A program made the position numbers and the translations under genes. Of a DNA stretch of 64,000 nucleotides, positions 25,755 to 34,287 are shown one piece after another. The stretch spans positions 2,642,904-2,706,903 of the forward strand of contig CP011806.1 in NCBI GenBank assembly GCA_001664505.1, read 5' to 3'. The number at the start of each line of letters is the position of its first letter. The stretch's first letter is position 1. The stretch comes from Acidobacteria bacterium Mor1. Its GTDB lineage: Bacteria > Acidobacteriota > Polarisedimenticolia > Polarisedimenticolales > Polarisedimenticolaceae. The notes below the pieces were generated by a model. It was not told the DNA's origin. It ran no database searches and saw only the letters and a program-made list of their open reading frames with translations.

Positions 25755-26198
25755 ATGTCCGACAAGAAACAGCGCCAGCAGAACGTCCTCGGAATCCTTG
25801 CGCGCAACCGCATCGACTCCCAGGACCAGCTGCTGGACCTGCTGCTGGCCGAAGGGGTGCGCACCACCCAGTCGACCCTCTCCCGGGACCTGCGGGAGCT
25901 GGGCATCGTCAAGAGCCCCTCGGGCTACCGCCGTCCCGAAATCGATGCCGCCCGCCCGGCACTCCTGGACGATCTCGCCCGCCAGATCCGGCGCAAGCTG
26001 ATCCGTGTCGACGTCGGCGGCAACATCGTGGTGTTGCGCACCGAGATCCCTGAAGAGGCGGTGGAGGTCGCCGGCCAGATCGATCGCTCGGCGGTGCACC
26101 AGGCGATCAGCGCCCTGGCCATCGGCGACACGGTGCTGGTCATCGCGAGGACGCCGGCCTATGCGAGGGATGTGGCCCGGGCGCTGAGGAAGGCGTAG
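25755..26198 (+). CDS. argR: Arginine repressor ArgR-like
   Basis: 147 residues, the normal ArgR length. The N-terminal winged helix has STLSRDLRELGIVK, the recognition helix signature of ArgR/AhrC. The C-terminal hexamerisation domain (about 75-147) ends with HQAISALAIGDTVLVIAR. In typical ArgR the arginine-binding loop reads GTIAGDDT with two adjacent Asp; here the aligned stretch reads ALAIGDT, so one of the two is Gly. Arginine sensing may be altered. No arginine biosynthesis or catabolism gene is in the window, and it stands 42 bases after the CRTAC1 gene. Confidence 0.87.
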   Translation: MSDKKQRQQNVLGILARNRIDSQDQLLDLLLAEGVRTTQSTLSRDLRELGIVKSPSGYRRPEIDAARPALLDDLARQIRRKLIRVDVGGNIVVLRTEIPEEAVEVAGQIDRSAVHQAISALAIGDTVLVIARTPAYARDVARALRKA

Positions 26199-31594: not shown

Positions 31595-32686
31595 CTAGCT
31601 CCTGGCGATCATGCTTGAAAGAGACTGAACCCCAACTAGGTTGCGCAAACGGGTCTCCAGGCGGAGAAACCTACGATAGATCTCTGATTCGGCTATTTCG
31701 TCGCCAACCGCGGGTGCGGCTCGGAGAATAATCTCCGATCTGCCCTCTTCCCGAGCGGGCCGCTGCTGAAGGGCACGGATATTGATCTCTTGCTGAGCGA
31801 GAGCCTTGCAAAGCGCACTGAGGACTCCGGGCACGTCGAGCACGCCGAGTTCGAAATAGAACGTTGACCTTTTCGTCGCGGCGGGGAGTGTCCGAACGAG
31901 AGTCTCGCTCGTAGCCTCTGCGTCGGGCAGTCGCTCCACGCCCAGACTGCTCAGTTCTCGGTTGATTGCCTCCATGACAGAGTCCTCGTCCGGCAGCTTG
32001 CGCTCGGGCTCCCAGCACTCGGCGGTGAGATCGAGCGCAGCGAGCCCTCCCACAGAAGAGCCGGACACGTAACTCACGTTCAACCGAAATTTCGAGTAGA
32101 GCAACTCAGCAACTCGGCCGAGGATGCCGGGACTATCGGCACCGCCAAACCTGAGGTGGAGTCGCATACCAGCGAGCGCCCTAGATAGGTTCCCACGCCC
32201 CCAACCGCCCAAGACTACGCTGTACAGATCGGCCGCCAAGTCATGGTATTCCCGGTAGTAGTGGTACTTGATCTCCGAGAGTCCAGGAAGAGCAATCGCG
32301 ATTTGAGCATTGAGCTCAGGCACAATCGGCTCGCCCTTCACACCGAAGGGCTCCCTCATCCAGATATGAAGGCTGTCTCCCGGCGGCGCCCCGTTTACTT
32401 GATCCCGGGCCATAAAGTGTTGCAACTCGAAGATTAGTGGCGGGCGGCCCTCAAGGTTCGAGTCTGCATGGCCTAAGTGATCGTCACAGATCATCAAAAA
32501 GGCGTCGCTTCGCTCGACCATGCTCTCCATGAGGGCTTTGGACTCGATGCCTCGAGCCATCTGTTCCGCCTCGATGAATACAGGCACGTGACCCAGCGAA
32601 TGAACAACATCGATGGCTGACTTCCTCTCGACGATGTTCTTCATGCGAGACGCAACAAAGATGTGCAGTGGGCGGAATTGTTCCAT
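31595..32686 (-). CDS. TIR/deoxyribosyltransferase-like (DUF4062-like) domain fused to two ACT domains
   Basis: 363 residues from ATG 32686; a TTG at 32707 would add seven. The N-terminal domain (about 7-110) has the layout of DUF4062/TIR/nucleoside deoxyribosyltransferase-like folds: PLHIFVASRM, a helix, GHVPVFIEAEQM, SDAFLMICDDHLG, then PPLIFELQHFMA, where E87 matches the place of a catalytic Glu. ACT domain 1 (about 174-250) has RFGGADSPGILGRVAELLY; ACT domain 2 (about 274-355) has LGVLDVPGVLSALCKALAQQ. ACT domains bind amino acids or similar small ligands, so the architecture reads as a ligand-sensing module on a possible NAD- or nucleoside-processing domain. Hand counts on four 60-base lines give 52-57% G+C, against 67% in a neighbouring gene, which suggests transfer. 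Confidence 0.6.
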   Translation of the reverse strand: MEQFRPLHIFVASRMKNIVERKSAIDVVHSLGHVPVFIEAEQMARGIESKALMESMVERSDAFLMICDDHLGHADSNLEGRPPLIFELQHFMARDQVNGAPPGDSLHIWMREPFGVKGEPIVPELNAQIAIALPGLSEIKYHYYREYHDLAADLYSVVLGGWGRGNLSRALAGMRLHLRFGGADSPGILGRVAELLYSKFRLNVSYVSGSSVGGLAALDLTAECWEPERKLPDEDSVMEAINRELSSLGVERLPDAEATSETLVRTLPAATKRSTFYFELGVLDVPGVLSALCKALAQQEINIRALQQRPAREEGRSEIILRAAPAVGDEIAESEIYRRFLRLETRLRNLVGVQSLSSMIARS

Positions 32687-33402: not shown

Positions 33403-33576
33403 GGCGGCGGGCTCCTTTGGGGCGGGCGTCACTTCAGGACGGCAGTATGCATTCCGAATCGCCGAGCGCCGACTGCAGTCTGAGGAACCGGTCCAACTGT
33501 GCTGAGGTTCGTGCGATTGCCCGACCTACCGCCCCGCTCTAGACTCGATGGACAGGATCTTCACACCGAGCGACCG

Positions 33577-34287
33577 ATGACCAAACGCGCCATCACCGAA
33601 CAACGCGGGCTGCGAACACCAAACCGTTCCGGGTTCGAAGGCGCCCGAAGCCGGATCCTGCAAGCCCCCGTGCTGTTCATGCTGGTTGCCGCTCTCGCGT
33701 GCACGGACCCACCCGAACCGGTTTCTCGACAGGCCCGGAACGGCGAGCCGGCAGGATTCGTCGACCGGCTTTCCGCGGCCGCGCTGGAGCGGACGCTCCA
33801 TGAGGTGAAGCCCGACCCGGGCTACTACCCGATCGACTACCCGGGAGGTGACGTTCCCGAAGACCGCGGTGCCTGCACCGACGTGGTAGTCCGCGCGTAT
33901 CGCAGCCTGGGAATTGATCTACAGAAATAAGTGCACGAGGTGATGTCGGCGGACTTCGGTCGCTTCCCGGGCAAATGGGGACTCGCTGAGCCCGATCCCA
34001 ACATCGATCATCGACGGGTGCTGAACCTCGAGGTGTTCTTTTCTCTCGAAGGCGAGGAGCTCGCCGGAAGTGACGACGCCCAGGACTACCAACCGGGTGA
34101 CATCGTCACCTGGCGGTTGGGCCTGGGTAGTCGACCGCACATCGGAGTCGTGGTGGACCGGAAATCATCGGACGGCAGCCGATTCCTCGTCGTGCACAAC
34201 GTCGGCAACGGCCCGGAACTGGATGACGTGCTGTTCGGGTATGAAATCGCGGGCCACTACCGCTACTACGGCCCCGCTTCCCGATAG
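33577..34287 (+). pseudogene. DUF1287 family protein interrupted by one in-frame TAA
   Basis: Reading through from ATG 33577, the frame gives a lipoprotein-like signal (AALACTDPP), then GYYPIDYPGGDVPEDRGACT, VVRAYRSLGIDLQK, a TAA at 33928-33930 and, in the same frame, VHEVMSADFGRFPGKWGL, PDPNIDHRRVLNLEVFF, PGDIVTW and a closing GHYRYYGPASR. In the DUF1287 family this region is continuous, typically GIDLQ-LVHEDM, so the TAA replaces one sense codon, probably a Leu. Both halves look otherwise intact. GTG 33931 could start a separate product, but that would lack the conserved Cys-Thr-Asp block. The alternatives are a real recent nonsense mutation or a sequence error. It converges with the thioesterase gene, overlapping it by 22 bases. 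Confidence 0.8.

What the first reader, a model, noticed from the sequence alone, without database searches (positions are those of the whole stretch)
31595..32686. Low-GC orphan gene joining a TIR/deoxyribosyltransferase-like domain to tandem ACT sensors
Seen: an N-terminal alpha/beta domain with FVASRM, GHVPVFIEAEQM, SDAFLMICDDHLG and a Glu in PPLIFELQHF, followed by two ACT-like halves each with a D-x-PG-[IV]-L turn. Composition is 52-57% G+C on hand-counted lines against 67% in a neighbouring gene. Known: TIR, DUF4062 and nucleoside deoxyribosyltransferase-like domains are effectors or sensors in several bacterial immune and nucleotide-signalling systems; ACT domains bind amino acids and other small ligands. 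Inference: a one-gene, transferred, ligand-gated NAD- or nucleoside-processing protein, perhaps defensive. I do not know a described system with this architecture.
Basis: partly seen in the sequence, partly recalled or inferred. Interest (0 to 1): 0.78.

Follow-up and report, generated by a model that had tools for sequence, protein, structure and literature searches.

The report
TIR-like NADase with amino-acid-sensor domains
A single, probably horizontally acquired bacterial gene joins a TIR-like domain of a recently recognised NAD-destroying immune enzyme family (DUF4062) to two small-molecule-sensing ACT domains, a combination I could not find described, and its only relative found sits beside known anti-phage-type genes in a distant bacterium.

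Summary
The gene is real: window 31595-32686, minus strand, 363 aa. Its N-terminus passes Pfam's cut-off for DUF4062 (27.3 bits against 24.7). Its C-terminus holds one clear ACT domain (44.5 bits) and one weak one before it. Predicted with an alignment, residues 1-100 (pLDDT about 89) match TIR and nucleoside-deoxyribosyltransferase-like (DNPH1, MilB) structures at Z 10-12. E87 aligns with the Glu that is catalytic in the DUF4062 NADases KpSwz (E97) and TEP1 (E1008), described in a 2026 preprint (PMC13174449). GC3 is 0.67, lowest of the window's genes (median 0.87). No homologue appeared in five other same-family genomes or the phylum sample. Of 59 other DUF4062 proteins, none scored on an ACT profile.

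One relative with the same domain order exists in a Bacteroidota genome. It starts a compact four-gene cluster with a ThsB-like TIR, a DUF4231/SLATT 2-TM protein and a second TIR protein. Activity, ligand and defence are untested, and at the window's locus the gene stands alone. Best reading: a new domain variant of the DUF4062/TIR NADase kind.

The parts
31595..32686 (-). CDS, 363 aa: DUF4062 (TIR-like) + ACT + ACT
   Evidence: ORF; Pfam DUF4062 and ACT above curated cut-offs
32387..32686 (-). TIR-like/DUF4062 core, residues 1-100 (Pfam match 9-75); the domain probably continues to about residue 162
   Evidence: Pfam; AF2 model with alignment, pLDDT about 89 over residues 1-100; VIA-align Z 10-12 to TIR, DNPH1, MilB and NDT structures
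32426..32428 (-). Codon of E87, candidate catalytic Glu in the first turn of predicted helix 83-97
   Evidence: Glu in 57 of 57 DUF4062 rows; the same column is mutated in the KpSwz E97A chain. One small alignment shifts it by two residues
32021..32167 (-). First ACT-like half (residues about 174-222, 'ADSPGIL' turn)
   Evidence: Weak: 4.1 bits with the ACT profile built here; strand-helix-strand-strand in the model at 175-223, pLDDT about 50-70
31652..31867 (-). Second ACT domain (residues about 274-345, 'LDVPGVL' turn, 'INI')
   Evidence: Pfam ACT 44.5 bits at 279-322; nearest to ACT of homoserine dehydrogenases

Best explanation
The gene encodes a two-module protein. The N-terminal DUF4062 domain is a TIR-like NAD(P)-cleaving enzyme (inferred from family membership and the aligned Glu E87). 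The C-terminal tandem ACT domains form a regulatory module that binds an amino acid or similar small metabolite, or serves mainly as a dimerisation platform, and holds the enzyme off until a stress such as phage infection changes the ligand or the oligomeric state (inferred). Released, it would deplete NAD+ or make an ADP-ribose signal, giving abortive infection (inferred). In the Bacteroidota relative it is probably one component of a conflict locus with a ThsB-like TIR, a 2-TM SLATT-type protein and another TIR protein (adjacency shown, joint function inferred). In the window's genome it is a solitary gene, probably acquired by horizontal transfer (composition and patchiness shown, transfer inferred).
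For: DUF4062 above cut-off. Residues 1-100 modelled at pLDDT about 89, matching SPARTA, AbTir, TIR-STING, DNPH1, MilB and NDT structures at Z 10-12. The profile of the same alignment finds KpSwz (230 bits) and human TEP1 TIR (21.7 bits) in the PDB. E87 column is Glu in 57 of 57 DUF4062 rows, and the KpSwz chain carries the E97A substitution in that column. PMC13174449 reports E97-dependent NADase and phage defence for KpSwz and E1008-dependent NADase for TEP1. Clear ACT domain. Lowest GC3 in the window; absent from five same-family genomes and from the other 395 of 396 phylum genomes sampled. Relative L101 in Bacteroidota has DUF4062 at 26.7 bits and ACT-profile score 13.7 bits against at most 4.7 for 59 other DUF4062 proteins. 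The two share FxxSRM, E87 and LDVPG, and their N-domains are sisters in a tree, 95/71. L101's neighbours on the same strand are ThsB_TIR (33.0 bits), DUF4231/SLATT (50.9 bits) and TIR_2/TIR-TM, with gaps of 3-38 bp, and these four genes are more AT-rich than three other genes measured nearby.
Against: No activity, ligand or phenotype was measured. The window locus is not a defence island: neighbours are a GST-like gene, a 4HBT thioesterase, a YkuD protein and an unknown 711-aa protein. Arg of the family's G-x-R-Y-G motif (TEP1 R976 by my residue count; its Ala mutant is less active) is His70 here and Thr in L101, so the pocket has diverged and could be inactive or act on another substrate. One alignment places E87 two residues off. 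The C-terminal halves of P0001 and L101 are only marginally similar pairwise (ACT2: 9 of 2000 shuffles as good; ACT1: 769 of 2000). The tree join is between two long branches. Only one relative is known, so the association with defence genes rests on one locus.
Confidence: 0.5

Rival explanations
1. A catalytically dead or re-purposed TIR-like domain: the N-domain binds a nucleotide (NAD+, ADP-ribose or a Thoeris-type signal) as a sensor or scaffold, and the ACT domains act as a second sensor or dimeriser. The protein is a regulator, not an NADase.
For: Family Arg at the G-x-R-Y-G motif is replaced in both members (H70, T); FVASRM replaces FxSST; per PMC13174449, human NWD1, NWD2 and NPHP3 carry DUF4062 but showed no NADase activity.
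Against: E87, R21, E39, D61 and G72 of the family are all kept, and the Glu is kept in L101 in the pairwise alignment.
Confidence: 0.25
2. A nucleoside 2-deoxyribosyltransferase or nucleotide N-hydrolase-like (DNPH1/MilB-type) enzyme under allosteric amino-acid control: metabolic or nucleotide-salvage regulation without a role in immunity.
For: DNPH1 and MilB are among the best structural matches (Z 11-12.3, tied with TIR within 1); ACT domains typically regulate metabolism; ACT2 is nearest to homoserine dehydrogenase and aspartokinase ACTs; the window locus has no defence neighbours.
Against: Sequence falls in DUF4062, reported as NADases; patchy, composition-anomalous presence; the relative lies beside ThsB/SLATT/TIR genes.
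Confidence: 0.13
3. A decaying or chance fusion: a transferred DUF4062 gene joined to an unrelated ACT module in this genome, with no conserved function.
For: No homologue in the sampled family and phylum; nearly a singleton in the collections searched; long branch.
Against: Intact 363-codon frame with codon-position bias and even GC3 across both halves (0.68 and 0.67); the same domain order in a Bacteroidota protein.
Confidence: 0.1

Closest known systems
Swarozyc (KpSwz, DUF4062 NADase; PMC13174449, PDB 10wc/11cq/11cv)
   Same: N-terminal DUF4062 TIR-like domain; aligned catalytic Glu (E97 with E87); single gene with a C-terminal accessory part
   Different: Swarozyc's accessory part is an HTH/winged-helix domain that binds phage portal; here it is tandem ACT. 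G-x-R-Y-G Arg and F-x-S-S-T motif are altered here
TEP1 TIR domain (DUF4062; PDB 11gz)
   Same: TIR-like DUF4062 fold; catalytic Glu E1008 in the matching column
   Different: Multidomain NACHT/WD40 vault protein with an extended BB loop; no ACT
Thoeris (ThsB TIR) and SLATT/TIR conflict loci
   Same: The Bacteroidota relative is adjacent to a ThsB_TIR-family and a DUF4231/SLATT-type gene
   Different: No ThsA (SIR2-SLOG) was annotated there; at the window locus none of these neighbours is present
ACT-regulated metabolic enzymes (homoserine dehydrogenase, aspartokinase)
   Same: C-terminal ACT with D-x-PG-V-L turn and I-N-I strand; best PDB sequence matches 3mtj and 3s1t
   Different: Catalytic module is TIR-like, not a dehydrogenase or kinase
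DNPH1 / MilB / nucleoside deoxyribosyltransferases
   Same: Same superfamily fold, Z 10-12
   Different: Sequence belongs to DUF4062; extra ACT domains

Membership tests
DUF4062 (PF13271) | Profile score above curated cut-off | tested here: met
   27.3 bits against 24.7
DUF4062 (PF13271) | Conserved catalytic Glu in T-x-x-E-[YF] helix | tested here: met
   E87 in that column; offset by two in one small alignment
DUF4062 (PF13271) | F-x-S-S-T and G-x-R-Y-G signature | tested here: inconclusive
   F, S, R21 and G72 kept; T replaced by R14 and Arg by H70; both positions vary in other members
TIR/NDT-like fold | Parallel beta-sheet alpha/beta fold matching TIR or NDT structures | tested here: met
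   Z 10-12 to many TIR and DNPH1/MilB/NDT chains, N-domain pLDDT about 89; Foldseek alone weak (best E 0.03)
TIR-like NADase | Glu-dependent NAD+ cleavage | not testable with these tools
   Needs protein and NAD+
Swarozyc defence system | C-terminal HTH/winged-helix auxiliary domain that binds phage portal | tested here: not met
   C-terminus is ACT by Pfam
Swarozyc defence system | Location in a defence island | tested here: not met
   No defence genes among the ten neighbour proteins scanned with Pfam
ACT domain | Profile score above curated cut-off | tested here: met
   44.5 bits against 27 for the second copy; first copy weak
ACT domain | Small-molecule binding | not testable with these tools
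   Needs binding assay
Thoeris | ThsA effector beside ThsB TIR | tested here: not met
   Relative's cluster has ThsB_TIR but no ThsA annotated; window locus has neither

The most novel reading that the evidence does not exclude
A conserved, rare class of immune NADases in which an amino-acid- or metabolite-sensing tandem ACT module directly gates a TIR-like catalytic domain, so that a change in host amino-acid pools during infection triggers NAD+ loss or an ADP-ribose signal; in some genomes it works with ThsB-like TIR and SLATT membrane effectors.
Probability: 0.3. Interest if true: 0.85.

Novelty: new variant of a known kind. Interest (0 to 1): 0.62.

Why it matters
TIR-type immune enzymes are usually triggered by phage proteins, nucleic acids or nucleotide signals. 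An ACT-gated TIR-like enzyme would link immunity or cell suicide to amino-acid pools, a trigger I know of no TIR-family protein using. It makes a simple test possible: add amino acids to the purified protein and watch NAD+.

Tried and rejected
Single-sequence AF2 gave a useless model (mean pLDDT 37.6). In the alignment-based model the two homoserine dehydrogenase ACT fragments were misaligned to the N-domain, so only residues 1-100 are trusted. P0001 found no relative in genome contigs, viral contigs, plasmids or phages, nor did L101 in the last three. A motif-with-spacing DNA scan of genome contigs found ordinary DUF4062 of Bacillaceae and chance hits, but no ACT relative. Whole-genome searches of 398 Pseudomonadota and 240 Gemmatimonadota genomes gave only homoserine-dehydrogenase ACT domains or frames that look like chance, and 239 Bacillota genomes gave nothing. 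24 genomes around the Bacteroidota relative gave only itself. PADLOC and PHROGs gave no hit for P0001. hhalign of single sequences to the ACT alignment was uninformative. The 711-aa neighbour's orthologues in two same-family genomes lie in different surroundings, so no empty site could be defined. No tRNA in the window, and no obvious long flanking repeat near the gene.

Full report
What is there. The gene lies on the minus strand, 32686 to 31595, and encodes 363 aa. Pfam finds DUF4062 at residues 9-75 (27.3 bits, cut-off 24.7) and ACT at 279-322 (44.5 bits, cut-off 27); the first ACT copy is weak. G+C is 58.0% against 67.5% for the window, and GC3 0.67 is the lowest of the ORFs called there (median 0.87). 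GC3 is the same in both halves (0.68 and 0.67), so the two modules probably arrived together (inference).

Fold and active site. With an alignment of 56 DUF4062 fragments from viral and bacterial contigs (plus two homoserine dehydrogenase ACT fragments that MAFFT misplaced), residues 1-100 are modelled at pLDDT about 89; the rest is poor. VIA-align matches TIR domains (SPARTA, AbTir, TIR-STING, MAL) and DNPH1, MilB and deoxyribosyltransferases at Z 10-12, tied within about 1-2 units; Foldseek alone is weak. The same alignment used as a profile finds KpSwz (230 bits) and the TEP1 TIR chain (21.7 bits) in the PDB. E87 falls in a column that is Glu in 57 of 57 DUF4062 rows, and the KpSwz chain in the PDB carries the E97A substitution in that column. 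A smaller alignment shifts E87 by two because the loop before it differs in length, so the match is likely but not certain. The Arg of the family's G-x-R-Y-G motif is His70 here and Thr in the relative. By my residue count on chain 11gz it is TEP1 R976, whose Ala mutant is less active (PMC13174449).

What the family does. A 2026 preprint (PMC13174449) reports that DUF4062 is a family of TIR-like NADases: KpSwz defends E. coli against phages by depleting NAD+ after binding the phage portal, and human TEP1 cleaves NAD+ and NADP+. Its main text never mentions ACT domains; the supplement, which lists auxiliary domains, could not be read. No paper held pairs 'ACT domain' with 'NADase'.

How rare it is. 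No homologue appears in five other same-family genomes, in 60 relatives, or in the rest of 396 phylum genomes. Viral, plasmid and phage collections gave none. DUF4062 itself is common: 47 of 396 phylum genomes carry it, with five copies in this genome, and 143 stretches in IMG/VR contigs encode it. None of 59 other DUF4062 proteins reached the inclusion threshold of an ACT profile (best 4.7 bits).

One relative. A search of 238 Bacteroidota genomes with the N-domain found a 439-aa protein (L101) with DUF4062 at 26.7 bits. The ACT profile scores it 13.7 bits, in the expected positions. The two share FxxSRM, E87 and LDVPG. Their N-domains are sisters in a tree at 95/71, with a long-branch warning. 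Pairwise similarity of the C-terminal halves is only marginal, so the shared architecture rests on profile evidence and motif position.

The relative's neighbours. It is the first gene of a tight same-strand cluster, followed by a ThsB_TIR protein (33.0 bits), a DUF4231/SLATT-type 2-TM protein (50.9 bits) and a TIR_2/TIR-TM protein. These four genes are 27-34% G+C, against 39-43% for three genes nearby. SLATT proteins are predicted to be nucleotide-signal-responsive pore-forming effectors, often with TIR genes (PMC7159879, PMC9503650). This context supports a conflict role, but it is one locus.

The window's neighbours. A GST-like gene lies 128 bp upstream on the same strand; around it are a 4HBT thioesterase, a YkuD protein, a TPR/FG-GAP protein and an unknown 711-aa protein. 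None suggests defence or amino-acid synthesis, except that an ArgR-like repressor gene lies about 5 kb away (25755-26198).

Verdict. Shown: the gene, its DUF4062 and ACT domains, TIR/NDT-like fold, aligned Glu, anomalous composition, one distant relative with the same order beside TIR/SLATT genes. Inferred: NAD cleavage, ligand gating, defence and horizontal transfer. It is a new variant of the DUF4062/TIR NADase kind, not a member of Swarozyc as defined by its portal-binding auxiliary domain.

Noticed in passing
window 33499-34287 (+): DUF1287-like gene (named from memory of the family, not scanned) split by an in-frame TAA at 33928-33930, with lower GC3 (0.71-0.76) than most neighbours; probably a pseudogene or a recent stop.
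   Followed up: partly
G000:C1 2712206 (L032:7201-8382:+), about 5.3 kb beyond the right end of the window; also L033:6349-7323:-, L034:7113-8396:+, L035:6912-9890:+: Four other DUF4062 genes in the same genome, without ACT, GC3 0.73-0.87.
   Followed up: partly
IMG/VR loci L110-L189: 143 of 158 stretches matching a DUF4062 motif on viral contigs encode DUF4062 proteins, many close to the KpSwz type; the family is common on phage or prophage contigs.
   Followed up: no
L104:6273-9633 (Bacteroidota): Compact cluster DUF4062-ACT-ACT, ThsB_TIR, DUF4231/SLATT, TIR_2; a candidate multi-gene defence system without an annotated ThsA.
   Followed up: partly
L047, L049, L051-L054, L056, L062 (phylum genomes): A distinct DUF4062 branch with YLAET/FLAET-type starts, where the catalytic Glu column is mostly Gln or another residue in the alignment; perhaps inactive relatives.
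   Followed up: no
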